The position numbers and the translations under genes are program-made. From a virus: a stretch of 45,615 nt of DNA. The stretch spans positions 1 to 45,615 of IMG/VR virus record IMGVR_UViG_3300047157_000012. One strand, 5' to 3'. Shown one piece after another: positions 16,712-38,614 of this stretch; within the stretch, counting starts at the first letter, position 1; every line of letters starts with the position of its first letter. The notes under the pieces are model-generated. The model was not told the DNA's origin, made no database searches, and saw nothing but the letters and a program-made list of their open reading frames with translations.

Positions 16712-18253
16712 ATGGCAGATAAATTAAGTACATACCTGTCAGTTTGTGCTGGAGGGTTAATCACTAACGTAGATCCCTTAACTCAAGCCTCTGGCTTATC
16801 TGGTAGTGCTATACGTATGATTAACTATGAACCTGCCCTATCGGGTGGGTATCGTCGTATCAGTGGTTACTCTAATGACTATGGTACTGTTCCCGGAACA
16901 GGCCCTGTATTAGGACTAACAGTAAACGGCAACTTACACGATGGTATATTTGCATGTAGAAAACCTACATCGGGTCATGATTACTTATATAGATGGCAAG
17001 ACTCTAGTGACTCTTGGGTAGCTATACCTGAAGCTGGTAATCCTAATATGACTAACGTATCTAGGATTAGATTTACTAGTTATAATTGGTCAGGCGAAGT
17101 AATACTTCTTACTGATGGGGTAAATCCAGCCGCAACTTATGACGGAACTAATTACGTACAGATAACTCACACTCAAGCACCTAATAATCCTAAGTATTCA
17201 GAAGAGTTTGCCTCTCATGCATTCTTATGTGGTGATTCATCTGAACCGTTTAACTTATTTTTTAGTGCACCTTTAAATGCTACAGATTTTAGTCCTGCTA
17301 ATGGTGCTGGTGTTATTAATGTAGGTTACACTATAACAGCAATTAAAAAGTTCCGTAATCAATTATATATTTTTGGTGCTAATAATATAAAAAGATTAAC
17401 AGGTAATAATGCGGCTAACTTTGTATTAGAAAATGTTACTTCAAATATGGGTTGCCTTGCTCCTGATTCTGTGGTAGAATTTGGTGGTGACTTACTTTTC
17501 TTAGGGCCTGATGGTATACGTCCTGTTTCTGGTACTGATAAAATTGGTGATGTTGAACTCGCTACAGTTTCTAAAGAAATACAGTCTATATTCGATAACT
17601 ATTATCTATCAGAACAAATAGAAGATGTAGCTATTGTAGTACTTAGGAAGAAGTCACAGTTTAGATTCTTCTTTAAAAACGATGCTTCTCTATCTTTAAT
17701 AGGTGGTATACGTAAGAGTCAGAATAAGCAGAGTATTTTTGAGTATAGTCAGCTTACTGGTATGGAAGCAAATTGTGTAGCTAGTGGATACATAGGACAA
17801 TTTGAACATGTAATACATGGAGATGGTTCTGGTAGAGTACATAGACAAGAAAAAGGTAATAGCTTTGGTGGTAACTCTATCTTTAGTTTATATCAAACAC
17901 CCTACTACTATATGGAAGACCCAGAAATACGTAAGGTAATACATAAAGTAAACACTTACTTAAAATCAGAGGGTGATACAGAAGTTTTTGTTGGTGTCTC
18001 TTATGACTACGATGACACAGGGACAAGCAACCCTACTAACTATGAGTTTACTACAGAGGGTGCAGCTTCAATTTATGGTACAGCTATATATGGAGCAGGT
18101 GGTATATATGATGGTAATCCCTCACCTAAAACACTTACAAATATATCTGGATCAGGTAACTCTGTTTCGATAAGTTACGTTACGAATAATACAAATGCAA
18201 GTCATACTATACAGGCAGTAGCCTTGACGTATGAGACAGCCGACAGGAGATAA
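16712..18253 (+). CDS. Tail tubular protein B / nozzle-like protein
   Basis: 513 residues. It begins with LSVCAGGLITNVDPLTQASG and INYEPALSGGYRRISGYSN, the characteristic opening of marine podovirus tail tube or nozzle proteins. Beta-rich repeats follow (FASHAFLCGDSSEPFNLFFS, YIFGANNIKRLTGNN, LLFLGPDGIRPVSG), consistent with a propeller-like fold. It is expected to form the lower tail tube and carry the fibre. The fibre gene starts 4 bases after its stop, if the TTG start there is used. Confidence 0.75.
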   Translation: MADKLSTYLSVCAGGLITNVDPLTQASGLSGSAIRMINYEPALSGGYRRISGYSNDYGTVPGTGPVLGLTVNGNLHDGIFACRKPTSGHDYLYRWQDSSDSWVAIPEAGNPNMTNVSRIRFTSYNWSGEVILLTDGVNPAATYDGTNYVQITHTQAPNNPKYSEEFASHAFLCGDSSEPFNLFFSAPLNATDFSPANGAGVINVGYTITAIKKFRNQLYIFGANNIKRLTGNNAANFVLENVTSNMGCLAPDSVVEFGGDLLFLGPDGIRPVSGTDKIGDVELATVSKEIQSIFDNYYLSEQIEDVAIVVLRKKSQFRFFFKNDASLSLIGGIRKSQNKQSIFEYSQLTGMEANCVASGYIGQFEHVIHGDGSGRVHRQEKGNSFGGNSIFSLYQTPYYYMEDPEIRKVIHKVNTYLKSEGDTEVFVGVSYDYDDTGTSNPTNYEFTTEGAASIYGTAIYGAGGIYDGNPSPKTLTNISGSGNSVSISYVTNNTNASHTIQAVALTYETADRR

Positions 18254-18257
18254 TACT

Positions 18258-21200: not shown

Positions 21201-23129
21201 GGTTTATACTTAGGTGCAGACACCCTAGCACTGCAAAATGGGGCGCACAATGAGACTTATTTATCTGCTAGTGTTAATGGTGCTGTTTCTTTGCGTTATG
21301 ACAACGCAGAAAAATTAGCCACAACATCAACAGGCATAGACGTAACTGGCAAAGTGACATCCACAGGACTAATTGGGAATAATACAAACTTTGACATTGT
21401 TCAAAACACTAGCGATGGCTCAGACAACAAAAGAACGAGAATTGGTGGCGGTGGCGATGTCGTAAGTTCACGAGGCGCTATGATCGAGATGTCTGGTAAT
21501 GAGCATGGTAACGGAGGTATGCTTTTACTAAAATCTGGCCATGGTGGGGCATACAGTCAAATCAGGTCTTATACATCTGATACAGAACGTATGCGCATCG
21601 ACTCATCAGGTAACTTATTGGTGGGTACTACTACTGCAGGTGTTGCATCTTCTAGTAGTGTTCAGGGCGTTCAGATTGCTCCTACTACCTTATCCGTTGC
21701 AAGAAGCGGTGGGCAAGTTGCTTTTTTTAATAGACAAACAAACGATGGTGATATTGTAGACTTCCGCAAAAACGGCTCAACTGTAGGTAGTATTGGTACT
21801 GCTAACAGTGGTGACTTGTATATTGGCAACGATGATACAACATTATTATTTGCAGGTGGTTCTGATGCAATAATTCCTAGAGGTACAGCAGGTGCAACTA
21901 GAGATGGGGCTATTGATTTAGGCTTATCTTCTCACCGCTTCAAAGACCTTCACCTCTCAGGCTTGGCTTATACTAATAAAGTTGTAACACAAACAGTTTT
22001 TAGGGAAGGTGCAGACGGTTCTGGTCTGCATTTTACTACTAATGCTATTTACCCAACTGACCAAACTTCTGCTATTTCTAACGGAACAGAATCGTTAGGT
22101 GCGTCAGGCTATTGCTTCAAAGACCTCTACCTCTCAGGCTCTATAGTTAATCCATCTGGCAACCTAACACTAGATACTTCAGGAAACATGTTTCTTGATG
22201 CAAATGGTAGTTTAATAGTTTTTAGAGATGGTGGGCTTGAATATGGTAGAGTTGGAAATGACTCTAGCAATTTTGTAATCCATTCTTTAGTGAACGATAA
22301 AGACATACAACTTAAGGGACTTGATAACGGCACAGTAGTCACAGCCCTTACCCTTGATATGTCTAATGCAGGTCGTGCTTATTTCAATGCTGGTGCATCT
22401 TTTAATGGCGGAGTAAATTTAACAGATAACGATAGGTTAATTTGCGGAACACATGACGATTTACAGATTTGGCATGATGGTTCTAATAGTTATATTGAAG
22501 ATGCTGGCACTGGTAGCTTAAAAATACAAGCGTCAACTGAATTAAATTTACAACAGACAAATGGTGAATCTTATATTGATATGACTGCAAACGGTGCAGT
22601 AAAAATTTACTACGACAACTCCAAGAAATTTGAAACAACATCAGGTGGAATTTCAGTAACAGGCGATGCTTACGTTTCTAGTGGTAATATTGGGTATGAC
22701 AATGGTAATAGAGTTATGTTTAATAATAACTCACACATTGATTTTGAGATTAATGGTGGGACTGAAGTGCGAATTGAAAGCGATGGAGACTTGCACGTCG
22801 AAGGCAACGTCATTGCTTACTCTACAACAATCTCTGATGAGCGTCTAAAGAAAGACATCGTTAAGATAGACAATGCCTTAGATAAAGTATCACAGCTAAA
22901 TGGTTACACATTTGAATACCTAACTGATGGCAAAAAGTCTGCTGGCGTTATTGCTCAAGAAGTCGAGAAGGTAATGCCAAGTGCAATTACTGAAAGCACA
23001 TTACCCCTCAAAATGGGTGACGACGATAAGACTGAATACAAGACAGTACAATACGACCAACTTCACGGATTAATGATTGAAGCAATTAAAGAATTGAAAG
23101 CTGAAATCGAAGAACTAAAAGCGAGATAA
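18258..23129 (+). CDS. Very large tail fibre with S74 intramolecular chaperone
   Basis: 1623 residues from TTG 18258, chosen because AGGAG precedes it at a good distance, it avoids overlap with the nozzle gene, and it gives MAGYVRQSSADIIPTA, the usual start of podovirus fibre adaptors. ATG 18231 is the alternative. After the adaptor come many degenerate beta-helix repeats (TVDINAGNID, GNVTGN, GGTMSGAIAMG, DALNTLNELAAAINDDANF) and an Ala-rich coiled coil. The C-terminus is a peptidase S74 chaperone: SDERLKKDI with Ser 1526 and Lys 1531, then GYTFEYLTDGKKSAGVIAQE and a final coiled coil. S74 domains assist trimerisation and cleave themselves off. This protein should contact the host receptor. 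Confidence 0.88.
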   Translation: MAGYVRQSSADIIPTATLRAAPINAEYNKLRDAFAVSSGHKHDGSIGEGGYIPLIGDVDALNKVVINTATNQVGVFVEVSSAAVEQIRFSDGAIIPVITNDIDLGTSGLEFKDLYLDGTAHIDTLDVDINGAVAGTFTIGSTLGVTGTTTLSTANITTGVITSVDINSGAIDNVTIGGTTAGAGSFTTLSATGTSTLATVDINAGAIDGTTIGASSASPATVTDLTATGTSTLTTVDINAGNIDNTVIGASTAVAGSFTTVSTSGQATLATVDINGGNIDGTIIGASTTAAITGTTITGSSLVGPLTGNVTGNITGNVTGNLTGNVTGNVTAGSGLSTFNNVTVNGTLDVTGTTIANVTDPTSAQDAATKNYVDTADALKLNLSGGTMSGAIAMGGSKVTGLGAPSASTDAATKGYVDTEVSALVDSSPDALNTLNELAAAINDDANFSTTITNSIATKLPLAGGTLTGDIVMGTNAVTSTANPATNDELSRKGYVDAQDATKLNLSGGTMSGAIAMGTSKITGLGDPTANQDGATKNYVDTTALLKSGGTMASAIAMGDNKITGLGTPTANADAATKLYVDSIAGSNTAAAASATQAATSATNAATSATNSGNSATAAATSATNAANSYDDFDDRYLGAKSSAPSVDNDGDALIAGALYFNTTSNIMFVRSGSGGWQAAGSSVNGTSGRNTYTATSGQTTFSATYDVGYVDVFLNGVKLLVGTDVTATSGSTVVLSVGATAGDIIDIVGYGTFQLADHYSKTAADARFLGLAGGTMTGDIDGNGNKVLFGNVYSQLSDLPSASTYHGMFAHVHATGKGYFAHAGSWIPLANDTEKLNLSGGTMTGNLDVGGSVEFDSLSGTGSVSITNILDEDNMASNSATALATQQSIKAYTDTAIANLVDSSPGSLNTLNELAAALNDDASFSTTITNSIATKLPLAGGTMTGDISFGDNDKVILGAGSDANIRHDGGNTKFSHTGSGGLYLGADTLALQNGAHNETYLSASVNGAVSLRYDNAEKLATTSTGIDVTGKVTSTGLIGNNTNFDIVQNTSDGSDNKRTRIGGGGDVVSSRGAMIEMSGNEHGNGGMLLLKSGHGGAYSQIRSYTSDTERMRIDSSGNLLVGTTTAGVASSSSVQGVQIAPTTLSVARSGGQVAFFNRQTNDGDIVDFRKNGSTVGSIGTANSGDLYIGNDDTTLLFAGGSDAIIPRGTAGATRDGAIDLGLSSHRFKDLHLSGLAYTNKVVTQTVFREGADGSGLHFTTNAIYPTDQTSAISNGTESLGASGYCFKDLYLSGSIVNPSGNLTLDTSGNMFLDANGSLIVFRDGGLEYGRVGNDSSNFVIHSLVNDKDIQLKGLDNGTVVTALTLDMSNAGRAYFNAGASFNGGVNLTDNDRLICGTHDDLQIWHDGSNSYIEDAGTGSLKIQASTELNLQQTNGESYIDMTANGAVKIYYDNSKKFETTSGGISVTGDAYVSSGNIGYDNGNRVMFNNNSHIDFEINGGTEVRIESDGDLHVEGNVIAYSTTISDERLKKDIVKIDNALDKVSQLNGYTFEYLTDGKKSAGVIAQEVEKVMPSAITESTLPLKMGDDDKTEYKTVQYDQLHGLMIEAIKELKAEIEELKAR
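19179..19250 (+). repeat. Six 12-bp units inside the fibre gene (GN-V/I/L-T repeats)
   Basis: Six degenerate 12-base units coding for GNVT, GNIT, GNVT, GNLT, GNVT, GNVT. Third-position differences show that the amino acid pattern, not the DNA, is kept. This fits a triple-stranded beta-helix or spiral shaft of the fibre. Such repeats can expand or contract by slippage. Confidence 0.7.
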
Positions 23130-26795: not shown

Positions 26796-27058
26796 CTGAG
26801 AGTTGGCATCTTTCTAAGTCAGTACCAGTTACGTTAATCGTAGCTATCGTACTACAAACTATATCACTTGTATGGTATGTGTCTTCACTAGACTCATCCG
26901 TCAAAAATAATGCTCGTGATTTAGTTCGCCAAGAAACTCGTATTAATACACTAGAGAAAACAGTACAAATGCAAGCTGTCTCTCTAGGTCGTATTGACGA
27001 AAACATTAAAGCTATTCGTAACCTAGTAGAGAGAATGGCAGAACAAGATAATAAATGA
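26792..27058 (+). CDS. Membrane-anchored coiled-coil protein
   Basis: 88 residues: a single TM segment at about 11-32 (VPVTLIVAIVLQTISLVWYV) followed by a periplasmic or cytoplasmic coiled coil (ETRINTLEKTVQMQAVSLGR, NIKAIRNLVERMAEQ). The N-in, C-out layout resembles inner-membrane spanins, although no matching outer-membrane lipoprotein with a lipobox was found nearby. It overlaps both neighbours by 4 bases (ATGA), so it belongs to the exported-protein cassette. Role uncertain. Confidence 0.75.
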   Translation: MTESWHLSKSVPVTLIVAIVLQTISLVWYVSSLDSSVKNNARDLVRQETRINTLEKTVQMQAVSLGRIDENIKAIRNLVERMAEQDNK

Positions 27059-27612
27059 AACTCTTACTTATATTATTTACCCTACTAATTGGTACTGCTA
27101 CATATGCCAATGATGATGACACAATATATACTGATACAAACAGTACTATAACATCTAATGGGTCTATGGATACTACAATCAATAGCCCACCACCATCGGC
27201 TATATCTCCACAGATAAGTGCAAGTAACTCTGACTTATGTACTGTAGGTGTAGCAGGGGCGGTACAGACACAGATACTAGGTATCTCAGCAGGTCGTACA
27301 GTACGTGACATGAACTGTGAGAAGCTCAAGAATGCTAAGACTATGTATGACATGGGCATGAAGGTAGCCGCAGTATCAGTAATGTGTCAAGACGAAAGAG
27401 TGTTCGATGCTATGATGAATGCAGGTACACCATGCCCTAAAGATGGATTAGTTGGTGATCAAGCTAGACTAGCATGGGATATGGAAGCAGTTAAAGATGA
27501 GATCGAACGAGATCAAAACGATGTAATCAGAAAGATGTTTGATGAGAACAGTGAAACTAAGATTGGCTTGGGTGTTATCTTTAGTACTCTTGCCTTCTTA
27601 CTCCTACTCTGA
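27055..27612 (+). CDS. Exported protein with C-terminal membrane anchor
   Basis: 185 residues. A signal peptide is clear (residues 1-18, ending TATYA). The mature part has TDTNSTITSNGSMDTTINSP, PPPSAISPQISASNSDLCTV, GVAGAVQTQILGISAGRTVR and KVAAVSVMCQDERVFDAMMN with several Cys, and ends in a hydrophobic segment (IGLGVIFSTLAFLLLL, 170-185) that may act as a tail anchor. The pattern is shared with other marine phages, without known function. Its last 71 bases also encode the signal peptide of the next gene in another frame. Confidence 0.8.
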   Translation: MKLLLILFTLLIGTATYANDDDTIYTDTNSTITSNGSMDTTINSPPPSAISPQISASNSDLCTVGVAGAVQTQILGISAGRTVRDMNCEKLKNAKTMYDMGMKVAAVSVMCQDERVFDAMMNAGTPCPKDGLVGDQARLAWDMEAVKDEIERDQNDVIRKMFDENSETKIGLGVIFSTLAFLLLL

Positions 27613-28411
27613 ACCATATACGTATGGAGCTACAAGTAATGCGGCATCAGGTGCATTAGGTTGGTCTATGGACTCTATCTTACCTAGTATCGCTGGTGTA
27701 GATATAAATGGATTACTATATAGATACACTACAGTAAAAGACCCAGATGCAGACATGAAGGTACATGTAGGTAATCACAACGCAAGTGGAGATGGTTATA
27801 CATTTAGAGAGACTGATGACTGGTCTGGCGTACCCGGAAATACTATTGTTAAGTCTTTCCCTCTTTCAAATATACCAGCATCTAAATGGGGTACTGGGTT
27901 TGTTGAAGTTGAGGGTGAAGGAACTGTTAAAGATGCTGTTGTAATATACAACTACAGGTTAGACAAATGCTATGATCCACAGTCTGACCCATCTTGTGCA
28001 GGTTATGTAAAGCCTATGCCTGAGATACCAGAGGTTATAGTCTATGATGCACTAGAAGATGATGCAGTTGTAGATACACTAGAAGCTGAAGAGTTTCAGT
28101 ATGACGAAGATGGTAAACTTATACTAGATGAAGAAGAGGAAGAAGAAGAGACACGCATAGAGATGGGATTGACTGCCTCTGCTAATGCTCTTACACTATT
28201 CAAGGCACAGAATCAAAGCGATATAATATTAGCCTTAAACAAACAAACTAATATCAATATGTATTACAATGCAAAGATAAACGGCGGTACACTAAACGAT
28301 GCAGCTGGATTAAAAGATGGAACTATACCCGACAACAAGAAAGCTTTACGAAACAATTTAGCCCAACAAGTACTACATGAAAAAATGGTAGACATGCAGT
28401 ATAACAAATGA
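27542..28411 (+). CDS. Exported protein of unknown function
   Basis: 289 residues from the ATG at 27542. An in-frame TTG lies directly before it. A signal peptide spans about residues 1-23 (MRTVKLRLAWVLSLVLLPSY, cleavage near SYS-EP). The mature protein contains LGWSMDSILPSIAGVDINGL, VHVGNHNASGDGYTFRETDD, two Cys near DKCYDPQSDPSCAG and a strongly acidic run of Glu at about 200-206. The helical C-terminus ends QQVLHEKMVDMQYNK. The first 71 bases overlap the previous gene in a different frame. Not recognised as an enzyme; part of a set of co-transcribed exported proteins. Confidence 0.78.
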   Translation: MRTVKLRLAWVLSLVLLPSYSYSEPYTYGATSNAASGALGWSMDSILPSIAGVDINGLLYRYTTVKDPDADMKVHVGNHNASGDGYTFRETDDWSGVPGNTIVKSFPLSNIPASKWGTGFVEVEGEGTVKDAVVIYNYRLDKCYDPQSDPSCAGYVKPMPEIPEVIVYDALEDDAVVDTLEAEEFQYDEDGKLILDEEEEEEETRIEMGLTASANALTLFKAQNQSDIILALNKQTNINMYYNAKINGGTLNDAAGLKDGTIPDNKKALRNNLAQQVLHEKMVDMQYNK

Positions 28412-28419
28412 GGAATACA

Positions 28420-28908
28420 ATGAAATATTTAACAGCACTACTATCACTTTGTGCATTACCAGCATTTGCTACTGTAGATATTACAGGAAGCGTAGCCGCC
28501 AAGTGTGTTATTCAAGCAGATAAAGCTGGTGTATACGGCAACCCTATTGCCAGTAAGTTAAGCACAACACCTTCAGATGGTGGTGTACTACCTGTAATTA
28601 GGTTTGATGTATCTATTGCAGACTCATACACTGCAAACATAACTCACCCTACATCCTTTAGCTCTTCACCTAACCTTACAGATACACTTGCATGGACAGG
28701 AAGTACAAGTGTAACTAAAACTTCTGTGTCAGGAATGTCAGCTTATAATGATGCAAAAGTTGTAGTAGATAGTACCACTATCTTTAACCTAACTCTTGCA
28801 GGTTCAACATGGTTCTCTACTGCATCAAGTGCAATCTACGGTTCAGCTAAACCTTTGCCGGGAGGTACATACACTGCAGTTGTACAGGCTACCTGTATTG
28901 CTAAATAA
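28420..28908 (+). CDS. Exported pilin-like beta protein
   Basis: 162 residues from ATG 28420, which has a GAGG site 6 bases upstream. An ATG at 28408 would add four residues. Signal peptide MKYLTALLSLCALPAFA. The mature part starts TVDITGSVAAKCVIQADKAG and ends LPGGTYTAVVQATCIAK. The paired Cys near both ends and the beta-strand pattern resemble spore-coat-U/CsuA-type fimbrial subunits, but similarity is only by pattern. Possibly a secreted or virion-attached adhesin subunit. The next gene overlaps its end by 11 bases in another frame. Confidence 0.72.
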   Translation: MKYLTALLSLCALPAFATVDITGSVAAKCVIQADKAGVYGNPIASKLSTTPSDGGVLPVIRFDVSIADSYTANITHPTSFSSSPNLTDTLAWTGSTSVTKTSVSGMSAYNDAKVVVDSTTIFNLTLAGSTWFSTASSAIYGSAKPLPGGTYTAVVQATCIAK

Positions 28909-29284
28909 ACTAATCATAGCGTTTATGGGTTGGGCTACTGTTGTTTCTGCACATGAAATGACACCAGCCTACCCAATGTTAAAGCCTACGTATGTTGCAG
29001 GTGTAGTTAAAGCAGAGATGTCTTTGTTTAACTCACGAGAAGATGTAGAGTATTATCAGATAGATTTGTTTGATTTAAACTTTACAAACCTACCATTCTC
29101 ATCTAAGTATAGGATCATTAAAGTAGGTTATAAAGAACGTAAAGATTTTATTGTGTATATACGTGAGTTAGATTTAGATGAAGCTACATATATTTGTACT
29201 ACATCAAAGGTAAGAAAAAAGACAGACTCAAGAACTTTGGTTGTCTCTAGGATATGCTCACGTATTGATGGTGAGCCAGCATGA
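28898..29284 (+). CDS. Exported conserved protein, chaperone-like beta domain
   Basis: 128 residues from TTG 28898. This start gives a clean signal peptide (MLNKLIIAFMGWATVVSA, then HEMTP); no ATG does so well. The mature part, TPAYPMLKPTYVAGVVKAEM, LFNSREDVEYYQIDLFDLNF, DFIVYIRELDLDEATYICTT, is conserved in many marine phages. The beta-sandwich pattern recalls the N-terminal domain of periplasmic pilus chaperones, and the upstream neighbour is pilin-like, but this is a weak structural guess. It overlaps the next gene by 4 bases. Confidence 0.68.
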   Translation: MLNKLIIAFMGWATVVSAHEMTPAYPMLKPTYVAGVVKAEMSLFNSREDVEYYQIDLFDLNFTNLPFSSKYRIIKVGYKERKDFIVYIRELDLDEATYICTTSKVRKKTDSRTLVVSRICSRIDGEPA

Positions 29285-29697
29285 GATTAGCATTGGCATT
29301 ATGTGTCGTAGCTAGTTCAGCAGTAGCTGAGAGTAACAACCTAGCTCTAACACTACCTAACCCACCAATGAACTATCAGTCAGATAGATTTAGGGCAGGT
29401 AACCTAGACTGTAGTAATGCTGTAGGTGGTGGTGTAAACTTAGAGTTTGGTGTTACAGGTGTAGTCAACAATGTAGGTGGTACATTTAATCCATCAAGTT
29501 TTGGACACCAAAGTAAGGATGTAGGATTATATGCCCGTGTTGTTATACCTCTTGATAAACCTAAGTCTCGTATTAATTGTGACGACTTGTATCAGGTAGA
29601 GTTAGCTCAACGTAGACTAGAGATACAACAACTACGTAATGAGCTAGAAGCATTAAAGAACCTGCAACAGACAGGTGGTATGGACTTTGAGAACTAA
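29281..29697 (+). CDS. Exported protein with C-terminal coiled coil
   Basis: 138 residues. Signal peptide MRLALALCVVASSAVA. The mature part has LTLPNPPMNYQSDRFRAGNL, two Cys (CSNAVGGG and INCDDLYQ), a Gly/Val-rich beta stretch (LEFGVTGVVNNVGGTFN) and a C-terminal coiled coil (ELAQRRLEIQQLRNELEALK). It sits between the chaperone-like protein and a membrane coiled-coil protein, overlapping them by 4 and 1 bases. Its coiled coil could bind that of its downstream neighbour. Function unknown. Confidence 0.75.
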   Translation: MRLALALCVVASSAVAESNNLALTLPNPPMNYQSDRFRAGNLDCSNAVGGGVNLEFGVTGVVNNVGGTFNPSSFGHQSKDVGLYARVVIPLDKPKSRINCDDLYQVELAQRRLEIQQLRNELEALKNLQQTGGMDFEN

Positions 29698-30197
29698 TGG
29701 TAGATTTAACAAACGTTGAAAGCCTTGCTGACAAAGAAGTAAAAGCTGGTGGTGTAAAACTAACAGCAAGTTCAGTACTAGCTATAATAGCTTTCTTGTC
29801 TACAGTAGTTGGTGGTTTGTATGGTGGCTTTACTCTATACCAAAAGATAGAAGAAGTTGCAGGGTTAGACTTAGGTGCATATCAGCAACAGATGGATGTA
29901 ATGGATGCTAAGGTATCAGGTATATCTGAGAAGGTTGAAGAAAGTGTAGAGTACACTAGAGATATTAAGAATGGTCTGAAAGATGATCTGTTAAGAATAG
30001 AACAACAGACTGATAGAGTAGAAGACATGGTACGTGACAACGAAGACAAGGTACGTAAGATGATTGATGATGCTGAGGTACGATTCGAGAACCAAAGAGA
30101 ACGTGTAAGAGTATCACAGACATCTTCCATGAAAGAACTAGAAGATAGACTCAATGCTAAACTACAAAGAGCACTAGACAACCCTTTAGCCGACTGA
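29697..30197 (+). CDS. Inner-membrane coiled-coil protein
   Basis: 166 residues. A short N-terminal region precedes one TM segment at about 22-47 (LTASSVLAIIAFLSTVVGGL). Then comes a long coiled coil (about 60-160: MDAKVSGISEKVEESVEYTR, LLRIEQQTDRVEDMVRDNED). Topology would place the coiled coil in the periplasm. It starts in the preceding stop (TAATG) and ends the exported-protein cassette. It may be an anchor for the exported proteins or a spanin-like factor. No enzyme motif. Confidence 0.75.
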   Translation: MVDLTNVESLADKEVKAGGVKLTASSVLAIIAFLSTVVGGLYGGFTLYQKIEEVAGLDLGAYQQQMDVMDAKVSGISEKVEESVEYTRDIKNGLKDDLLRIEQQTDRVEDMVRDNEDKVRKMIDDAEVRFENQRERVRVSQTSSMKELEDRLNAKLQRALDNPLAD

Positions 30198-30203
30198 ATT
30201 AAC

Positions 30204-30231
30204 TTGACTTTTTAGTGTTTTTGAGTTAAAC
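30204..30231 (+). promoter_or_regulatory. Promoter of the acyltransferase-ejection protein unit
   Basis: TTGACT at 30204-30209 and TTAAAC at 30226-30231, 16 bp apart, followed by TAGT as in the promoter at 837-864 (AACTAGT in both). Predicted transcription start is about 30238, next to the ATG at 30239, so this transcript would also be nearly leaderless. The -10 box is weaker than in the other copies. Confidence 0.45.
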
Positions 30232-30238
30232 TAGTGTA

Positions 30239-30655
30239 ATGCAAATAGATAATAATAAAGCTCTAGCAGATGGTTTAGAATTATTTAGACAAAGTAAATG
30301 GCATAAGGTTTATAATGTAGAAGACATCTACAGATATCTAATAGCTCCTATTAAACATAACCGTATTCGTATATACTATCAAAACAACAAGCCTATAGGT
30401 TTAATAACATGGTGTTGGTTGGATAAAGAAGCAGGTAAAGATTTTCTTAATGACGAATATTATATTACAGAAGAAGATTACGTAGAAGATAGTAAACAAG
30501 AGCTTTGGGGTATAGAGTTTATAGCACCCTATGGTAATACAAGACAGATTATGTCTATGTTACGTAAAGAATATCACAACACCTATACAAGAAAAGAAAA
30601 GATAAACTGGCGTAGACTGCACGATTCAGCCACCAGACATACTAAGAAAGTTTAA
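30239..30655 (+). CDS. HlyC-like toxin-activating lysine acyltransferase homologue
   Basis: 138 residues; HlyC itself is about 170. Three blocks line up with the HlyC family. SKWHKVYNVEDIYRYLIAPI places His 22 where HlyC has its catalytic His 23. KPIGLITWCWLDKEAG matches the PVAYCSWANLS strand. ELWGIEFIAPYGN matches WFIDWIAPFG, with Glu 93 at the place of the catalytic Asp 92. Cellular members transfer a fatty acyl group from acyl carrier protein to lysines of RTX toxins. No RTX toxin is present here, so the substrate could be a virion or host protein. The Asp-to-Glu change may alter activity. It has its own promoter and precedes the ejection proteins. Confidence 0.75.
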   Translation: MQIDNNKALADGLELFRQSKWHKVYNVEDIYRYLIAPIKHNRIRIYYQNNKPIGLITWCWLDKEAGKDFLNDEYYITEEDYVEDSKQELWGIEFIAPYGNTRQIMSMLRKEYHNTYTRKEKINWRRLHDSATRHTKKV

Positions 30656-30658: not shown

Positions 30659-32737
30659 ATGAGCAGACATCTTTACAATCCTTTTATGCCAAGTATTCAC
30701 TTCAGAGATCAAGCTGTCTTTGGTGGTGGAGGCAGTGATGGGGGTCAAGTTGCACCAGAATTACCTAAATTTACCTCATCTAAACCAGAACTAGAAGGTC
30801 AAGTTTATGAATCAGAAGCAGCAATGAAAGCTGCTGAAGCTGTGGTAGATAAAGATGCAGCTGCTATTGTGGAATATTCTAAAGCTATTAATGCTGCAGT
30901 GTCTAATGTTACTGGTGAAAACTTAGATACTATAGCTAAGACTGGATTACAAATACAAGCGGTAAATGCTGTACCAAAACCTGGTGTAACTTATGGTTCA
31001 GAAAAAATATCTGCAGCTTTAAATGCTAAATTAGCTATACTAAATAAAACCATGCAAGATGCCCAAAGTGGTGGTGTTGCTGATCTTGCCACTGGTGTAC
31101 GTGACTTAGCAGCACAAGCTGTAACTGACCCAGGTTCATTAGCTAAGTCACCCGATGTTGCTACTGTAGATACTAACCTTTCAGGTAGTACTATAGCTGA
31201 AGGTACAGGTTCACTTACCAGTCCAGGTGCAATGTATGTTCCAGATACTGTTGAAACTACTAATATAGCTGCAGGAGCTGACCCAGTTACTGCATCTACT
31301 ATGACTGCTACAACAGCTGCAGACGCAGTTAAAGCTACTACTGACGCTACTGAAGCAGCTAAAGGTACTGTATCTGCTGAAGGTGTAGTACAAGCTGCTA
31401 CGAAAGATCCTACAACCACTGACGTATCAACTATAACTGCGGCTCAAGGTACAGCTACAGTGATGGATAATCCAGTACAAAGAGAAATACAACAAGGTGA
31501 ATTAATATCAGGTGTAGCTGATGCAGCTAAAGCATCTGCATTTAGTGAACAGATACAAGCGGCTACTGCTACACCATCTACACAAGCTACTGTTAAAGGT
31601 CAGCTTGATAATCTTATGCAAGACTTTGAGGGTGGAGCTACACCTACATGGGCGGCTGGAGCAATGCGTAATGCTAATGCTCAGATGGCGGCTAGAGGTT
31701 TAGGTGCTTCATCAATGGCTGGTCAGGCTATTATACAAGCAGCAATGGAATCAGCATTACCTATAGCTATGCAGGATGCACAAACTGTTGCAGGTTTTGA
31801 AATGCAAAACTTGTCGAATAGACAACAACGTGCTATGCTTGCCGCACAACAACGTGCTACATTTATAGGACAAGAATTTGATCAAGCTTTCCAAGCTCGT
31901 GTTGCTAACTCAGCTAAGATATCTGATATAGCTAACATGAACTTTACAGCTGAACAATCTATTGCGCTTGAGAACTCACGTAATGCTAATACGATTAACC
32001 TTAGTAATTTAAATAATAATCAAGCTATGGTGATGGCTCAAGCAGCATCTGTTGCTAATTTAGAACAACAAAATTTATCTAATCAACAACAAGCTGCAGT
32101 ACAAAATGCAAAGGCCTTCTTAGATATGGATATGGCCAACTTAAACAATCAACAACAGACAGAAATGTTTAAGTCTCAACAAATAATACAGTCTTTGTTT
32201 ACTGATCAAGCCGCAGAAAATGCAGCTAAACAATTTAATGCTTCGTCTGAAACTCAAACTAAACAGTTTATGGCTAATCTCCAGTTACAAACTCAACAGT
32301 TTAATGCTACACAACTTAATACAACAGAACAGTTTAATGCTGGTAGCACCAATGCAGCTATGCAGTTTAATGCTCAAGTAGAAAATCAACGTCAACAATT
32401 TAATGCACAGAATGCATTAGTTATTGCCCAAGCAAATGCTCAGTGGAGACAGAACGTAGCTACATTTAATACACAGGCACAGAACCAAGCTAATATGCAA
32501 CAAGCTCAAGCAGCTAATGCATTTACTCAAGGTACTCTTGATCAGATATGGCAACGTGAACGTGACCTTATGGACTATGCATATAAAGGTTCTGAAGCTT
32601 CTAAGGATCGTGTATTAGATATTATATTAGCTGATAAGAAATATGAAGAATATGATAAGGCCAGAGAAGATGCTGAAAAAACAGATATGTGGTCAGTTCT
32701 AATTGGAGCTGCTGGTAGCTTCATGCAAAATACATAG
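30659..32737 (+). CDS. Virion-internal protein with hendecad coiled coil
   Basis: 692 residues, Ala/Gln/Asn/Thr-rich and almost wholly helical. Residues 325-360 include the WAAGAMRNANAQMAARGLGA segment that is common in marine phage internal proteins. From residue 525 to about 612 there are eight consecutive 11-residue repeats beginning QFNA or close variants, a hendecad pattern that favours right-handed coiled coils or membrane-associated helical bundles. No signal peptide. Position at the head of the ejection gene set suggests an internal virion protein released with the DNA, perhaps helping to form a channel. This function is inferred. Confidence 0.7.
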   Translation: MSRHLYNPFMPSIHFRDQAVFGGGGSDGGQVAPELPKFTSSKPELEGQVYESEAAMKAAEAVVDKDAAAIVEYSKAINAAVSNVTGENLDTIAKTGLQIQAVNAVPKPGVTYGSEKISAALNAKLAILNKTMQDAQSGGVADLATGVRDLAAQAVTDPGSLAKSPDVATVDTNLSGSTIAEGTGSLTSPGAMYVPDTVETTNIAAGADPVTASTMTATTAADAVKATTDATEAAKGTVSAEGVVQAATKDPTTTDVSTITAAQGTATVMDNPVQREIQQGELISGVADAAKASAFSEQIQAATATPSTQATVKGQLDNLMQDFEGGATPTWAAGAMRNANAQMAARGLGASSMAGQAIIQAAMESALPIAMQDAQTVAGFEMQNLSNRQQRAMLAAQQRATFIGQEFDQAFQARVANSAKISDIANMNFTAEQSIALENSRNANTINLSNLNNNQAMVMAQAASVANLEQQNLSNQQQAAVQNAKAFLDMDMANLNNQQQTEMFKSQQIIQSLFTDQAAENAAKQFNASSETQTKQFMANLQLQTQQFNATQLNTTEQFNAGSTNAAMQFNAQVENQRQQFNAQNALVIAQANAQWRQNVATFNTQAQNQANMQQAQAANAFTQGTLDQIWQRERDLMDYAYKGSEASKDRVLDIILADKKYEEYDKAREDAEKTDMWSVLIGAAGSFMQNT

Positions 32738-32749: not shown

Positions 32750-33526
32750 ATGAGTTTACAATACAATGGGTTGCTAACTACTGCAAGGGAAGAAGCTGAA
32801 ATGCGGTTTCAGCAGAAGGGTCTTTCAGGTAGAAAACGTTCTCGCTTTATTGATGAAGATGATGATGAAAAACTAGGAGGTATAGTACCTAAACGTAAGT
32901 CCCTTAAAAGTTCTTTTGATGATTTAGATGATGACTTTTTAACAGAAGCATTTAATACTATATTTAATAGGGGTAAAGAAATAAAAGAATCTATAGGTAC
33001 TAAAGTAGCTTCATTAGATATGCCATCAGGTGATGCTGATAGTAGTTATTTAATTACGGATGATATACCTGTAGGTGAAGCCTCTGGTATGATTGAGATT
33101 GATGATAGTACAGCTAAGTTTATAGCTGGCTTTGAGAATAAAATTAAAGATTCTTATACAGCATACAAAGATGGTAATGGATATTCTATTGGTTTTGGTA
33201 CACCTTCCACTAAAGGTCAAGTTATAAATAAAGAAACAGCATTAAGTGAACTTAACTCTTATACTAAAAAGTTTGAGAAGATAGTTAAAGATGCTAATAG
33301 TAAGCATGGCTATGGATGGAATGATAATCAAGTAAAAGCACTTACAAGTTTTGCATACAACAATGGCTCAGGTGGATTTAATAAGTTAATAGAGAATGGC
33401 ACACGAGGTAATGAAGAGATATCTATGATGATGCTTGAATATAATAAGGCAGATGGTAAAGTTAATGAAGGTCTTGTCAAAAGAAGACAAGCAGAACTTG
33501 ATCTGTTTACACAAACAAATTCATAA
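32750..33526 (+). CDS. Virion-associated lysozyme, GH24-like
   Basis: 258 residues. An acidic, probably disordered N-terminus (FIDEDDDEK, DDLDDDF) precedes a lysozyme domain at about 120-255. IAGFENKIKDSYTAYKDGNG then YSIGFGT gives the catalytic Glu 129 and Asp 141; the usual Thr before IG is Ser 146. QVKALTSFAYNNGSGGFNKL and LVKRRQAELDLF complete the GH24 pattern. Located among the internal virion proteins, it probably opens peptidoglycan during entry, in contrast to the GH108 endolysin at 2121-2630 used for exit. Confidence 0.85.
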   Translation: MSLQYNGLLTTAREEAEMRFQQKGLSGRKRSRFIDEDDDEKLGGIVPKRKSLKSSFDDLDDDFLTEAFNTIFNRGKEIKESIGTKVASLDMPSGDADSSYLITDDIPVGEASGMIEIDDSTAKFIAGFENKIKDSYTAYKDGNGYSIGFGTPSTKGQVINKETALSELNSYTKKFEKIVKDANSKHGYGWNDNQVKALTSFAYNNGSGGFNKLIENGTRGNEEISMMMLEYNKADGKVNEGLVKRRQAELDLFTQTNS

Positions 33527-33541: not shown

Positions 33542-34060
33542 ATGTTTAGTGCACCTATACCTGGTCAGTCTCTAACCTCAGAGCCAAAAAATTCTCCTTG
33601 GGAAAACCCACCTCAAATATCTTCGCCAGAAGATGCTCTTATGTGGCACATAGACAGGCTAACTAAAAAAGATAAAACAAAAGCAGCAGTTACTATGCTT
33701 CAGTTAGGTATAGATGTAGTTACATTAACTGAAGGCATACTACGGGCAGCTGTATCAGAAGGTAGACACACTATAGATGTTAGTCTTATTATAGCACCTA
33801 TAGTACATGAGTTTATAAAGAACATAGCTGAAGAAGCTGGTATTGATTATGAGGAAGGCATTGAAGAAGAAGAGATGTCACAAGAGGATATAGATTATGC
33901 TATAGAAAGCAGGAAAGCATCTAAAATACTTGAAGGTATGGAAGATACAGGTGAAGTTGATCTATCTACACTAGAAGAACCAACTGAAGAAACACCTGAG
34001 ATGCCTGAAGAAACAATAGAAGATAAACCAATGGGTCTTATGTCACGGAGGAATGTGTAA
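33542..34060 (+). CDS. Conserved virion-region protein
   Basis: 172 residues. The N-terminal MFSAPIPGQSLTSEPKNSPW, a helical middle with MLQLGIDVVTLTEGILRAAV, HTIDVSLIIAPIVHEFIKN, and a long acidic C-terminal tail (EEGIEEEEMSQEDID to the end) form a pattern shared with many marine phages. AAAGGA precedes the ATG. It overlaps the next gene start by one base (TAATG). No known activity; it is probably a minor virion protein or an assembly factor for the internal proteins. Confidence 0.72.
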   Translation: MFSAPIPGQSLTSEPKNSPWENPPQISSPEDALMWHIDRLTKKDKTKAAVTMLQLGIDVVTLTEGILRAAVSEGRHTIDVSLIIAPIVHEFIKNIAEEAGIDYEEGIEEEEMSQEDIDYAIESRKASKILEGMEDTGEVDLSTLEEPTEETPEMPEETIEDKPMGLMSRRNV

Positions 34061-35136
34061 TGGGTATGTGGGGTGGCATAAAGGCTGGTATGGATCAGTT
34101 ACGTCAAGATAAAAAGGATCAGAAAATAGCTGACCTTCAGACTAGAGCAGATAAACGTGCAGAAGAAAACTTTAAGTTAGATCAACTTAAGTTTAAAATA
34201 AATACACTTAAAGATTTAAATTTATATAGTCCTACAGGAAGTAAGTCAGATAAAACTAATAAAACAGTTAAGGATGTACTTAAATTAAAAAACAGATTAA
34301 GAGAAGGTTTTGATACTTACTCTGAAGAGGATCAAAAAAGAATTACAGATTATGAAAATCAAATTATTCAAGATCCTTTAGAAGCTTCTGCAGTTTTAAA
34401 AGCACTAACTAGTTTAGGTGAGAAGGGTAGAAAGTTTAGTCCCTTAGAACTAATAGACACTTTTGAAATTATTAATTTTGTTGAGGGTACTAATACAGAA
34501 AAAAGAGCAGAGCTTGCAGAGACTTTAAATGTAGATTTAAGTATGGATGAGTTTGTAAAACTGGCTGAACTTGCAGCTACTTATACACCTCCATCAGTGA
34601 CTGTTGATTACAGTAGAGCAGATGTAACACCAATGACTGTAGATCAGATGACAAAGCAAGCAGCTATGTTTGAAAGATGGTTGGGCAGGGAAGCTAATAG
34701 AGTTATTAATTCTAAAGATACATCACAAGAAATAAAGAAAGATATTGTTACACTGCAAGGTGAATTAAATTCTAGTAATGAAATTGTTCGTCAACGTGCA
34801 ATGGATGCAATGACTAGTATATTATTTCCTGATCTATCGGTCTTTGAGGTTGTTAAAAATGAACCTTGGGGAAATCGTATAGATGAAAATATATACATAC
34901 TCCCACCATATAATCCAGTAGTTAAAGATACAGGTACACCACCTGTAACAGCCGCAGCAATATCTTTTTTAAATAATAATCCTAACAATTTACCTATAGA
35001 AGAACTAAAAGCACAGTTTGAAAAGAAATATAAAGTTTCAGCAGAAGACTACATCACTAATAATACTACTGAGAAAAACACTCCCAGTGGATATAGTGAT
35101 ATGAATCAAGAAGATTTTTTAAACGAAAGTCGTTAG
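34060..35136 (+). CDS. Putative internal virion protein, helical
   Basis: 358 residues, mostly helical and charged. It starts MGMWGGIKAGMDQLRQDKKD with a coiled coil (KIADLQTRADKRAEENFKLD). The middle has SLGEKGRKFSPLELIDTFEI and VEGTNTEKRAELAETLNVD. The C-terminus is Asn/Thr/Ser-rich. The next gene begins one base after the stop. No family is recognised. The place between a virion-region protein and the very large internal protein supports a structural or ejection role. Confidence 0.7.
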   Translation: MGMWGGIKAGMDQLRQDKKDQKIADLQTRADKRAEENFKLDQLKFKINTLKDLNLYSPTGSKSDKTNKTVKDVLKLKNRLREGFDTYSEEDQKRITDYENQIIQDPLEASAVLKALTSLGEKGRKFSPLELIDTFEIINFVEGTNTEKRAELAETLNVDLSMDEFVKLAELAATYTPPSVTVDYSRADVTPMTVDQMTKQAAMFERWLGREANRVINSKDTSQEIKKDIVTLQGELNSSNEIVRQRAMDAMTSILFPDLSVFEVVKNEPWGNRIDENIYILPPYNPVVKDTGTPPVTAAAISFLNNNPNNLPIEELKAQFEKKYKVSAEDYITNNTTEKNTPSGYSDMNQEDFLNESR

Positions 35137-35137
35137 T

Positions 35138-38100
35138 ATGCAACCAGAAGTAAATGTAAATCCTTTTGATAATTTACCTGAAGAAAATCCTTTTGATAAT
35201 TTACCTGAAGAAAATCCTTTTGATAATTTACCTGAAGAAAATAATAGTCTAACTAACTACACTCAAGATGACTTAGTAAACAACGACGAGTTATTTAATC
35301 CCATAAGAGATTTTATAAGTCTACGTCACGGAACTCAGGCAGTTGAGGGTAAAGATCGTGAGACTATTGTAGATAGATTTATGAACAATAGACGTGGTGT
35401 TGCCAGTGGTAATAGTGTTTATGGTATAGGTGAGTTAGACTTTCTTCGTGAGATTCGTGGAGACGAAAACGCAAATGTTGTAACAGGTAAAGCTTATCAA
35501 ATATACGAAGATATGGCAAACGTGTTTAGCTCAGAGACAAGTGCATCTGAAAAGTTTGAAGGTATAAAAGATTACGCAAGAAGTATTATTGTTGATCCTT
35601 TAAACTTAGTAGGTTTTGGTACAGCTAAGTTTGTTGGGGGTGGTGCAATTAGAGTTGCATCTAACTTTGCAAAGAAAGAAGCACTAAAAGCTATGGCTAA
35701 AGAGAGTGCCAAGAAGAGTGCAACTAAAACAACAATAAGAAAAGCTGGTGAGAAGGCTATGAGTTCGGCTTTAATTACAGCTGGGTCAGAGTCTACAAGT
35801 AAAGCTGTAACAAAAGCAGCTACACTACAAGCACTAAATGGACAGGGATTAAAAAAACTAAAGACAACAGGTGCTTTACGTGAGCTAGGAGTACAAGCTG
35901 GATTTGATTCTATTGTTAGTGTTGGTATGGAGTATGGATATCAAAGTGGTCTAGTTCAAACTGGAGTACAAGAGGATGTAAACAGATGGTCTTTAGGTTT
36001 AGCTTTCGTGGGTGTCTCTGTTATGAGTGGACTACAAGCTGCAAGTATACTAAAAAGAAGTACTGATATAGAGCTACCTTCTATAGCTGTAAAAATACCT
36101 GAAGCAAAAGATGTAAATATATTAGGTAAGTTTTCTAAAAGTCTTAATGATTATGCAGGTAAAAAAGCACCTGTTAAAGGTTCTTGGGAACAGGCTGTAA
36201 AGAAGGGACGTAAACTAGAAGATATAGACTCAGAGTTTTTTGTTGATATGCTTTTAGGTATAGGTGATAATGAAGATGGTGTTACATATCTAAAAGGTTT
36301 AGCACAGATAGCTTATGAAGAAGGTCTTACATATACTAAACGTAGTAAAACTGATAAGTATTCTAATTGGGTTGTAGATTTAATTAAACAATCTGACCCT
36401 CAAGAAGTAAAATCTTTTGCTAAAGCCTGGGAAAAAGTTACAGGTGTTAAAATAAAAGATATAGATAGTATGGGTATTGAAGAGTTTGCAAACAAATTTG
36501 CAGATAAGATGAATGCTAGTGCTAGAGTTTTAAATGCTGCTTCACAAGGTGCTAAAAAGAATGGTATAAGTATTGACGATTACACTAATCAACAGTTTCT
36601 AAACGATGCTTTAGGTCTAGGTATGATGACTAGTTCAAAAGCTACTGATGATACTAATAAAATAGTTCAAAGTACTTTAAATTTACTACCAGAAAAAACC
36701 AGTGAAAGTCTTGTGTCTACACAGAACCGTGTTATACGTTTAATAGTTACTCACCCATCTACAAGTGCACTTAACCTTACAGGTTGGGGTATGCTTAGTG
36801 GTTTAGGTTCTGCTGTTGATGTATCTACCGCACTATTACAAGGTGGTGCAGCTGCATTTAAGAAGGCGGCAGGTCAACTTGACGAAGGTGTAGACCCTTG
36901 GCGTGTATCTAGAGAGATATTAAAAGCTAATGCTAACAGACTTAAGCTAACACTTAATCCAGATATGACTTATGATTCTTATAAGTCTCTTCTTGAACTA
37001 CGTGGAGATGACTTATCAAAGCTATCTAATATAATAGCAGGTGGTGTAGAGGATACTAGTAAGATACTAACTAACTCATCACTGTCGCCATCAGCACAGT
37101 TAATAGGTGCTAAGACAGATGATGTAATAGATTTTATGCAGTTATTATCTTTGACTAAAGGTGTTGATGGGTTTACCAAATCACAAGAGATGATATATCA
37201 GTTAGATAAAAACCTTAGAGTTGCTTTTGATAAATCTTTCAATGATTTTTATACCGACCCTGCGGCAGCTAAGTTAATTCGAACTAAAGAATATAGAGCA
37301 TTAGAGGCTAAAGCTTTAGAAACTACCTTAGAAAGAATATCTTCAAAGTCTTATAAGGGTAATGATAACTTGGGTAAGGTTGCAGGTTTCTTTGAGGATG
37401 TACGTAACGTACCTGGTCTGGGTTTACTTATGCCTTTTGGTAGATTTTTTAATGGTACTGTTGATACTGTAGTTCAAAATACACCTATATCTTTTGTAGC
37501 AAAGAGTCTTGCAGGTAAATATAAAGATAAATCTTTTGCAGAACTTACGTCAAGATCAATGTTAACTTTAGGTGCTGCATATGCACTAACACAAACTGAG
37601 TATGAGAATAGAAAAAAAGGTTTAGCTATTGACCAGATGATTAATCCTAATACTGGTGAAATACAAACTGTTCAGTATAGCTACCCTCTGTCTCACTTGA
37701 AGTACGGAGCTAGGGCTTGGTCTTATATATTAAATGGTGAAGAAATACCTGAAGAAGTAAAGCAAAAAATAGGTAAGGATATAGGTTTAAAATCTTTTAC
37801 TCGTAATTTTGAATCAACTTCTGACGACATAGTTAAAATATTTAATAGTGCTTTTGATCCTAGTGGTGATGAGTTTATGCGTAGCTTAACTAGAACTGGA
37901 GGTCTTATAGGATCTCAATTAATATCAGGTGCTACCCGTCCACTAGAACCTATTAACTTTGCAGTTGGTTTTGCTACTGGTTCTAATGGTGAATTAATAG
38001 ATCGTAAACAAGGTAACTCATTTATGAATAAATCTATGAGATACTTTAATGAGATATCAAATTTGCTTATAGGTACAGAAGATGTCCCACAGTCTATGCA

Positions 38101-38614
38101 AGCAGCAGGTGGACCAGTGTTCTTACAGGCAAGTAAGATACTAGGTAGTAGACCTGTACGTCTTTCATCTACTGAACGTGTTATGAATATTATGGGTAAA
38201 GAACCCTACAAATTAAATGCTGCATCTGCAATAACAAGAAAAGCACCTGAAGCTGCTAATAAATATAATACATATATGTTTTTAGCCATTGAAGAAGGTG
38301 CACAAGAACTATTAGACTTAGGTTTCTCTACTTGGAGTCCTAAGAAACAAGAGTTAAAATGGAAAGATTTAGTAAGACAAAAGAAACAAGTAGCTGAAAC
38401 AATGTTATACGTAGATAACTCTGATGCTAATGATACTGCTGGTATTATGTACGAGTTAGCTAATAAATATTCGTTTAAAAAGATTGACAAGGCATTAGAC
38501 AGCATGTCAGAAACAACAAAAGAGGAACTCAAATTTGAGGACCTCTCTGTTGAACAACTATATGCACTGAGGGATTGGTTATCTACTGCAGATACTAGAT
38601 CTTTATTAGATTAA
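35138..38614 (+). CDS. Large internal (ejection) virion protein
   Basis: 1158 residues, in the size range of T7 gp16-like ejection proteins. It opens with three exact NPFDNLPEE repeats (encoded by a 27-bp tandem repeat). A helical region follows with EGIKDYARSIIVDPLNLVGF and an Ala/Lys-rich stretch (LKAMAKESAKKSATKTTIRK). Later parts include VIRLIVTHPSTSALNLTGWG and GFFEDVRNVPGLGLLMPFGR, with amphipathic and hydrophobic helices that could insert in membranes. No transglycosylase motif was seen; the lysozyme is encoded separately at 32750. It ends at the convergent junction, overlapping the end of the - strand gene there. Confidence 0.75.
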   Translation: MQPEVNVNPFDNLPEENPFDNLPEENPFDNLPEENNSLTNYTQDDLVNNDELFNPIRDFISLRHGTQAVEGKDRETIVDRFMNNRRGVASGNSVYGIGELDFLREIRGDENANVVTGKAYQIYEDMANVFSSETSASEKFEGIKDYARSIIVDPLNLVGFGTAKFVGGGAIRVASNFAKKEALKAMAKESAKKSATKTTIRKAGEKAMSSALITAGSESTSKAVTKAATLQALNGQGLKKLKTTGALRELGVQAGFDSIVSVGMEYGYQSGLVQTGVQEDVNRWSLGLAFVGVSVMSGLQAASILKRSTDIELPSIAVKIPEAKDVNILGKFSKSLNDYAGKKAPVKGSWEQAVKKGRKLEDIDSEFFVDMLLGIGDNEDGVTYLKGLAQIAYEEGLTYTKRSKTDKYSNWVVDLIKQSDPQEVKSFAKAWEKVTGVKIKDIDSMGIEEFANKFADKMNASARVLNAASQGAKKNGISIDDYTNQQFLNDALGLGMMTSSKATDDTNKIVQSTLNLLPEKTSESLVSTQNRVIRLIVTHPSTSALNLTGWGMLSGLGSAVDVSTALLQGGAAAFKKAAGQLDEGVDPWRVSREILKANANRLKLTLNPDMTYDSYKSLLELRGDDLSKLSNIIAGGVEDTSKILTNSSLSPSAQLIGAKTDDVIDFMQLLSLTKGVDGFTKSQEMIYQLDKNLRVAFDKSFNDFYTDPAAAKLIRTKEYRALEAKALETTLERISSKSYKGNDNLGKVAGFFEDVRNVPGLGLLMPFGRFFNGTVDTVVQNTPISFVAKSLAGKYKDKSFAELTSRSMLTLGAAYALTQTEYENRKKGLAIDQMINPNTGEIQTVQYSYPLSHLKYGARAWSYILNGEEIPEEVKQKIGKDIGLKSFTRNFESTSDDIVKIFNSAFDPSGDEFMRSLTRTGGLIGSQLISGATRPLEPINFAVGFATGSNGELIDRKQGNSFMNKSMRYFNEISNLLIGTEDVPQSMQAAGGPVFLQASKILGSRPVRLSSTERVMNIMGKEPYKLNAASAITRKAPEAANKYNTYMFLAIEEGAQELLDLGFSTWSPKKQELKWKDLVRQKKQVAETMLYVDNSDANDTAGIMYELANKYSFKKIDKALDSMSETTKEELKFEDLSVEQLYALRDWLSTADTRSLLD
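35159..35239 (+). repeat. Perfect 27-bp tandem repeat, three copies
   Basis: Three identical consecutive 27-base units (35159-35185, 35186-35212, 35213-35239) encode NPFDNLPEE three times at the N-terminus of the large internal protein. Perfect identity at the DNA level points to recent expansion by slippage or recombination, and the number may vary between isolates. Each unit gives one acidic NPF-containing peptide. Confidence 0.9.
38521..38546. repeat. 26-bp imperfect palindrome near the convergent junction
   Basis: AGAGG (38521-38525) is complementary to CCTCT (38542-38546), and the core CTCAAATTTGAG (38528-38539) is a perfect palindrome; only two bases on each side do not match. It lies in the last part of the large internal protein gene. 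With no loop it is more likely a protein-binding or cruciform site than an RNA terminator. It could also be chance in coding sequence. Confidence 0.4.

What the first reader, a model, noticed from the sequence alone, without database searches (positions are those of the whole stretch)
30239..30655. Phage-encoded HlyC-like lysine acyltransferase without an RTX toxin
The protein matches the toxin-activating lysine acyltransferase family in three blocks: His 22 at the catalytic His position, the PIGLITWCW strand, and LWGIEFIAPYG, where Glu 93 replaces the catalytic Asp. Known members acylate RTX toxins. None is encoded here, and the gene has its own promoter and leads the ejection protein genes. 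A phage that fatty-acylates its own internal or exported proteins, for example to help them enter membranes, would be new biology.
Basis: partly seen in the sequence, partly recalled or inferred. Interest (0 to 1): 0.78.

Follow-up and report, generated by a model that had tools for sequence, protein, structure and literature searches.

The report
Phage HlyC-like enzyme paired with ejection protein
This marine phage carries a relative of the bacterial enzymes that attach fatty acids to toxins, yet it has no toxin; the gene sits directly before the gene for a protein the phage probably injects with its DNA, and the start of that injected protein differs whenever the enzyme is absent, so the enzyme probably prepares it for its job.

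Summary
ORF 30239-30655 (138 aa) is a HlyC/TAAT-family (PF02794) protein: 75 bits against a cut-off of 25, and ApxC is the best solved-structure match (Foldseek E=1e-8, TM 0.75). His22 is invariant in all 56 clade-A relatives and position 93 is acidic in 88/88. The window has no RTX repeats.

Homologues are already annotated in cultured Pelagibacter and Roseobacter phages, so the gene is not new. Its partner relation may be. The gene has a conserved promoter and lies directly upstream of the probable ejection protein (30659). In 32/32 HlyC+ genomes that protein begins with a lysine-free tag, (Y)NP[FL]M...FGGG; among 73 HlyC-minus relatives only one has it, and its upstream region is off-contig. 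A DNA search for a tag variant across IMG/VR gave 21 hits; directly upstream lay a HlyC-type gene (4) or an unrelated family annotated as acyl/acetyltransferase (17). T7 gp13 (same position and size, function unknown) models as a GNAT fold.

Best reading: an acyltransferase-fold protein dedicated to the first ejection protein, probably acylating it. Catalysis and the acceptor are unproven; no HlyC-specific invariant lysine exists. A chaperone role is the main rival.

The parts
30204..30232 (+). Sigma-70-like promoter TTGACT-17-TAAACT; -10 ends 6 nt before the ATG, no Shine-Dalgarno, so a leaderless mRNA is likely
   Evidence: Conserved with the same spacing in 20/20 clade-A1 loci, including L016 and L028 whose upstream genes differ; generic scan alone not above chance
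30239..30655 (+). HlyC/TAAT-family (PF02794) acyltransferase-fold protein, 138 aa; His22 and Glu93 at the catalytic dyad positions
   Evidence: Pfam E=5.6e-21; ApxC fold match E=1e-8; H22 56/56 in clade A, acid 93 in 88/88
30659..32737 (+). Probable DNA ejection protein (692 aa), the likely partner or substrate; starts 3 bp after the HlyC stop codon
   Evidence: Homologous to HMO-2011-type phage proteins; C-terminal part matches CRP-235 gp25, which hits phrog_4287 'DNA ejection protein'; directly downstream of the HlyC gene in every clade-A1 locus
30659..30733 (+). N-terminal tag MSRHLYNPFMPSIHFRDQAVFGGGG, no lysine
   Evidence: NP[FL]M...FGGG tag in 32/32 HlyC+ genomes; among 73 HlyC-minus only L168, whose upstream region lies off the contig; variant of the tag also in 17 phages with a different slot enzyme
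32171..32173 (+). Codon of Lys505 of the ejection protein, the only lysine invariant in HlyC+ homologues; candidate acceptor, weak
   Evidence: 27/27 HlyC+, but also 63/72 HlyC-minus
32750..33526 (+). Lysozyme/endolysin-type protein of the ejection block
   Evidence: phrog_7 endolysin E=6e-26; a lysozyme gene also follows in the ejection block of CRP-235, CRP-738 and CRP-3
33542..38614 (+). Remaining ORFs of the probable ejection block (172, 358 and 1158 aa)
   Evidence: Position only; no confident Pfam or PHROG match where searched

Best explanation
The gene encodes a HlyC/TAAT-type member of the GNAT superfamily dedicated to the first ejection protein encoded next to it. It fills an 'enzyme slot' that other podoviruses fill with other small proteins (T7 gp13, the CRP-738 gp29 family, perhaps P22 gp14). 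Proposed working: late in infection it is made from its own promoter; it recognises the N-terminal tag of the new ejection protein; and, with its His22/Glu93 dyad, it moves a fatty acyl group from host acyl-ACP onto that protein. This would help the ejection protein enter the virion core and later insert into the envelope of the next host, as CdiC lipidation strengthens CdiA binding to the outer membrane. Shown here: family, fold, conserved dyad, purifying selection, promoter, adjacency, co-variation with the tag. Inferred: catalysis, acyl-ACP as donor, the acceptor residue, the time of action and the benefit. I put about 0.75 on the gene being the partner of the downstream ejection protein, and less on acylation itself.
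For: HlyC family and fold. His22 in 56/56 clade-A sequences, acid 93 in 88/88, dN/dS about 0.1. Directly upstream of an ejection-type protein in clades A1 and A2 and of the third lineage's ejection-like block, and directly upstream of the central tail protein in Pelagibacter siphophages. The ejection protein keeps its C-terminal part with or without the enzyme, but the N-terminal tag is present only with it (32/32 against 1/73, that one with its upstream region off-contig). All 21 IMG/VR hits to a tag variant have a HlyC-type (4) or CRP-738-gp29-type (17) gene directly upstream. T7 gene 13 has the same length (417 bp), its own promoter and the same place before gene 14; its model is a GNAT fold, and gp13 is needed to incorporate other proteins into the virion (PMC5592923). 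T7 gp14 is an insoluble outer-membrane pore (PMC8954989). CdiC is a TAAT that lipidates a non-RTX protein for outer-membrane binding (PMC8510554).
Against: The tag has no lysine, and no lysine in the ejection protein is both invariant in and specific to HlyC+ phages. Asp is replaced by Glu in the window. Clade B has lost the His. HMO-2011, CRP-2 and CRP-207 types do without the enzyme, as does siphophage HTVC202P, whose tail protein keeps a similar N-terminus. phiKMV and SP6 have no slot gene. In HTVC103P/104P the homologue lies in the early region. The GNAT nature of the CRP-738 gp29 family is weakly supported. One shared ancestry of the HlyC+ ejection genes is not rejected (AU p=0.28).
Confidence: 0.45

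Rival explanations
1. Chaperone or scaffold: an enzyme fold kept for binding. The protein holds the N-terminal tag of the ejection protein, keeps it soluble and loads it into the procapsid, without chemistry. Slot families are exchangeable because only tag binding matters.
For: T7 gp13 is annotated as a probable scaffold (Pfam name) and is needed to incorporate other proteins (PMC5592923). The tag lacks lysine. Clade B lost the His. Slot families share no detectable sequence similarity with each other.
Against: His22 and the acid are invariant in 56 clade-A sequences although their surroundings vary; a pure binder would not need the dyad.
Confidence: 0.28
2. The enzyme acylates something else: another virion protein (the later ejection proteins or a tail protein) or a host protein. 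Its place before the ejection gene reflects late-gene regulation.
For: Homologues sit in other contexts: tail module in siphophages, early region in HTVC103P/104P, after the ejection homologue and before a Lys-rich protein in HTVC115P.
Against: The strict co-variation of the downstream N-terminal tag with the enzyme is not expected. The exported cluster 27055-30197 is excluded as an obligate partner.
Confidence: 0.2
3. Passenger gene: a horizontally acquired host toxin-activation gene kept as neutral cargo or a lysogeny-type moron without a virion role.
For: Patchy presence among HMO-2011-type phages.
Against: Strong purifying selection, conserved promoter, conserved place over several diverged lineages, no toxin gene.
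Confidence: 0.04

Closest known systems
HlyC / ApxC toxin-activating acyltransferases (PF02794, TAAT)
   Same: Profile match, fold, catalytic His and acid positions, GNAT-type core
   Different: No RTX protoxin; Glu in place of Asp in the window; shorter (138 aa against the 183-residue ApxC chain); [N]W.R motif near the C-terminus; sits in a virion morphogenesis module
CdiC of class IV CDI systems (PMC8510554)
   Same: TAAT homologue encoded directly before the gene of its non-RTX substrate; proposed benefit is outer-membrane attachment
   Different: Bacterial; substrate Lys and 3-hydroxydecanoyl group supported by experiment; nothing of the kind shown for the phage
Bacteriophage T7 gp13 (PF11090, internal virion protein A / probable scaffold)
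   Same: Same length, own promoter, directly before the first ejection protein gene, GNAT fold by prediction
   Different: No sequence similarity (hhalign probability 0.6%); not matched by the HlyC profile
CRP-738 gp29 / CRP-3 gp28 slot family (phrog_7642; CRP-738 gp29 annotated 'putative acyltransferase')
   Same: Same slot, downstream protein starts with a variant of the same tag
   Different: No sequence similarity to HlyC; GNAT assignment weak
Annotated phage homologues: CRP-235 gp30, HTVC111P gp50, HTVC026P gp47, HTVC112P gp46, HTVC103P/104P/115P
   Same: All PF02794 by profile or annotation
   Different: CRP-235 keeps the His; the Pelagibacter phage proteins lack it

Membership tests
HlyC/TAAT (PF02794) | Profile score above the curated cut-off | tested here: met
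   75.2 bits, cut-off 25
HlyC/TAAT (PF02794) | ApxC-like fold | tested here: met
   4whn top hit, E=1e-8, TMq 0.75 on a pLDDT-85 model
HlyC/TAAT (PF02794) | Catalytic His | tested here: met
   H22 aligned with the ApxC His, 56/56 in clade A; lost in clade B
HlyC/TAAT (PF02794) | Catalytic Asp | tested here: inconclusive
   Glu in the window; D and E alternate within clades A1 and A2, always acidic (88/88); activity with Glu unknown
HlyC/TAAT (PF02794) | Encoded with an RTX protoxin (usual setting, not universal: CdiC acts on CdiA) | tested here: not met
   No RTX repeat in six frames. I treat this as the usual setting, not as a defining feature
HlyC/TAAT (PF02794) | Transfers acyl from acyl-ACP to an internal Lys | not testable with these tools
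   Needs biochemistry
T7 gp13 family (PF11090) | Profile match | tested here: not met
   No PF11090 hit at E<1; hhalign probability 0.6%
T7 gp13 family (PF11090) | Works-like features: directly before the first ejection gene, own promoter, GNAT-superfamily fold | tested here: met

The most novel reading that the evidence does not exclude
Short-tailed phages of several lineages carry an acyltransferase dedicated to their first ejection protein: HlyC-type here, GNAT-type in T7 (gp13) and others. It modifies the protein, fatty-acylating it in the HlyC case, before packaging. This would be a general protein-modification step in building the DNA ejection apparatus and would explain T7 gp13.
Probability: 0.25. 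Interest if true: 0.88.

Novelty: new variant of a known kind. Interest (0 to 1): 0.62.

Why it matters
T7 gp13 has been described as a protein of unknown function that is required to incorporate other essential proteins into the virion (PMC5592923). The data here suggest that it belongs to a functional class of GNAT-fold proteins tied to the first ejection protein, and that marine phages fill the same place with a lipidating-enzyme family. If acylation is real, phages would join CDI systems in using a toxin-activating enzyme to anchor a delivery protein in the target envelope. The claim can be tested by mass spectrometry of virions of phages already in culture (T7, CRP-235, CRP-738).

Tried and rejected
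Exported-protein cluster 27055-30197 as the substrate: rejected as obligate partner, absent in L016/L028. A Lys acceptor in the co-varying tag: none there. HlyC-specific invariant Lys elsewhere: K505 is 27/27 in HlyC+ but also 63/72 in HlyC-minus; K524 is 25/27 against 12/72, K643 22/27 against 7/72; no clean candidate, and relatedness was not removed. Sequence homology of the HlyC family with T7 gp13 or with the CRP-738 slot family: none by hhalign, nor between those two. A GNAT link of the CRP-738 family by profile against the PDB: none; weak hits only. P22 gp14 as GNAT: not confirmed; DUF2824 only. A universal slot: rejected, phiKMV and SP6 lack it. Tag co-variation in siphophages: not seen, HTVC202P lacks the enzyme but keeps a similar N-terminus. 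Independent gains of the HlyC-plus-tag cassette: four changes on the tree, but one clade is not rejected (AU p=0.28).

Full report
WHAT IS THERE. ORF 30239-30655 encodes a 138-aa protein. It scores 75.2 bits against PF02794 HlyC, cut-off 25. A single-sequence search of the PDB finds only ApxC with confidence (E=1.4e-4) and aligns His22 and Glu93 with the ApxC dyad; a family profile raises this to E=3.6e-13. The AlphaFold2 model (33 sequences, pLDDT 85, pTM 0.80) has ApxC as the best PDB match (E=1e-8, TMq 0.75), followed by the GNATL domain of CurA; in the viral library the best match is a phage protein named HlyC. So the family assignment is sound, well above chance.

THE PHAGE. The window is a virus record. 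Its ejection-type protein matches HMO-2011 and related roseophages, and CRP-235, a described HMO-2011-type phage (PMC9038755), carries the nearest annotated homologue at the corresponding place. Homologues are already labelled toxin-activating lysine-acyltransferase in CRP-235 and in Pelagibacter phages. My literature searches found no study of their role; the library holds open-licence papers only.

CATALYTIC RESIDUES. Over 88 phage sequences: clade A1 (window type, 23) and A2 (CRP-235 type, 33) keep His22 in 56/56; clade B (32, Pelagibacter siphophages and a third lineage) has Tyr, Asn or Phe. Position 93 is acidic in 88/88. Trp58, Trp124 and Arg126 are invariant. dN/dS against four relatives is 0.09-0.14. 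CdiC and ApxC keep some activity without the His (PMC8510554), so loss of the His does not by itself mean loss of catalysis.

NEIGHBOURS. In A1 the gene always precedes the homologue of 30659, 3 bp apart or overlapping it. In A2 it precedes the CRP-235 gp29 homologue, then lysozyme and the ejection protein gp25. In the third lineage (L040) it overlaps the start of a protein with a Lys-rich, hydrophobic N-terminus, before an ejection-like coil protein ('ejection-like' is my reading of the sequence). In siphophages it stands between the minor tail protein L-type gene and the central tail protein. Exceptions are HTVC103P/104P, early region, and HTVC115P, just after the ejection homologue. The exported-protein cluster upstream in the window is missing in L016 and L028, but enzyme, promoter and ejection gene stay together.

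CO-VARIATION. I fetched 80 relatives of the C-terminal part of the ejection protein. The HlyC gene is present in 11, always directly upstream. Together with the earlier loci (several of which are the same contigs), the N-terminal tag NP[FL]M...FGGG is in 32/32 HlyC+ entries (25 by the stricter FGG.G pattern, the other seven by eye with FGGG) and in 1/73 HlyC-minus ones, L168, which is cut at the contig start so that its upstream gene is unseen. Some other HlyC-minus loci are also cut near the start of the protein. On a tree of the C-terminal part the label needs four changes, but a single clade is not rejected (AU p=0.28); independence is therefore not shown.

THE SLOT. CRP-738 gp29 and CRP-3 gp28 sit where CRP-235 has its HlyC gene but share no detectable sequence similarity with it. 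Their downstream proteins start with R[HY]LNPRASG[LM]IVF[KG]GGG, close to the tag of HlyC+ loci L016-L018 and L028. A DNA search of all IMG/VR contigs for this variant gave 21 hits. All 21 are protein starts with, directly upstream, a HlyC-type gene (4) or a CRP-738-type gene (17). Several of the 21 are near-copies, and the pattern was made from tags already known to lie beside such genes, so this tests whether the tag occurs without the enzyme (it did not), not the number of independent events.

T7 AND P22. T7 gene 13 is 417 bp, has its own promoter and ends 4 bp before gene 14. Its model (pLDDT 93) matches GNAT acyltransferases among the listed hits. No sequence similarity to the HlyC family is detectable: same place and fold superfamily, not shown to be the same family. 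[quoted passage not shown] P22 gene 14 (DUF2824) is directly before ejection gene 7; its fold was not tested. From memory, P22 gp7 loses a short N-terminal leader; I did not verify that here.

MECHANISM. The best-supported part is that the HlyC protein is the dedicated partner of the downstream ejection protein (about 0.75). That it acylates it rests on the conserved dyad and on CdiC as precedent, and is weakened by the lack of a clear lysine acceptor. A chaperone role is the strongest rival.

VERDICT. Gene family known and already annotated in phages; the setting and the tag relation appear undescribed in what I could search. New variant of a known kind, interest 0.62.

Noticed in passing
window 27055-30197: Run of small ORFs, several with signal-peptide-like starts, no Pfam match and only unknown PHROGs; a removable cassette, absent in L016 and L028.
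   Followed up: partly
window 30227-30239: The -10 box lies 6 nt before the ATG with no Shine-Dalgarno; the spacing is conserved in clade A1, which suggests a leaderless mRNA.
   Followed up: partly
L027 1308-1724 (T7 gene 13): T7 gp13 (Pfam: probable scaffold) models with high confidence as a GNAT fold.
   Followed up: yes
L332 1950-2363 and L333 1938-2351: In Roseobacter siphophages CRP-831 and CRP-811 a DUF6950 protein with a GEHDC motif occupies the slot that HlyC fills in Pelagibacter siphophages.
   Followed up: partly
L024 7980-8429, L250 1480-1929: HTVC103P and HTVC104P carry the HlyC-like gene in the early region beside the ssDNA-binding protein and primase genes.
   Followed up: partly
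L143-L222: The ejection protein of HMO-2011-type phages has a conserved C-terminal part but widely exchanged N-terminal parts (lengths up to 1656 aa).
   Followed up: partly
window 18231-23129: 1632-aa tail-fibre-like protein with a C-terminal Peptidase_S74 chaperone domain.
   Followed up: no
L247 3887-4342 (P22 gene 14): DUF2824 protein of unknown function directly before ejection gene 7; sequence looks GNAT-like by eye, fold not tested.
   Followed up: partly
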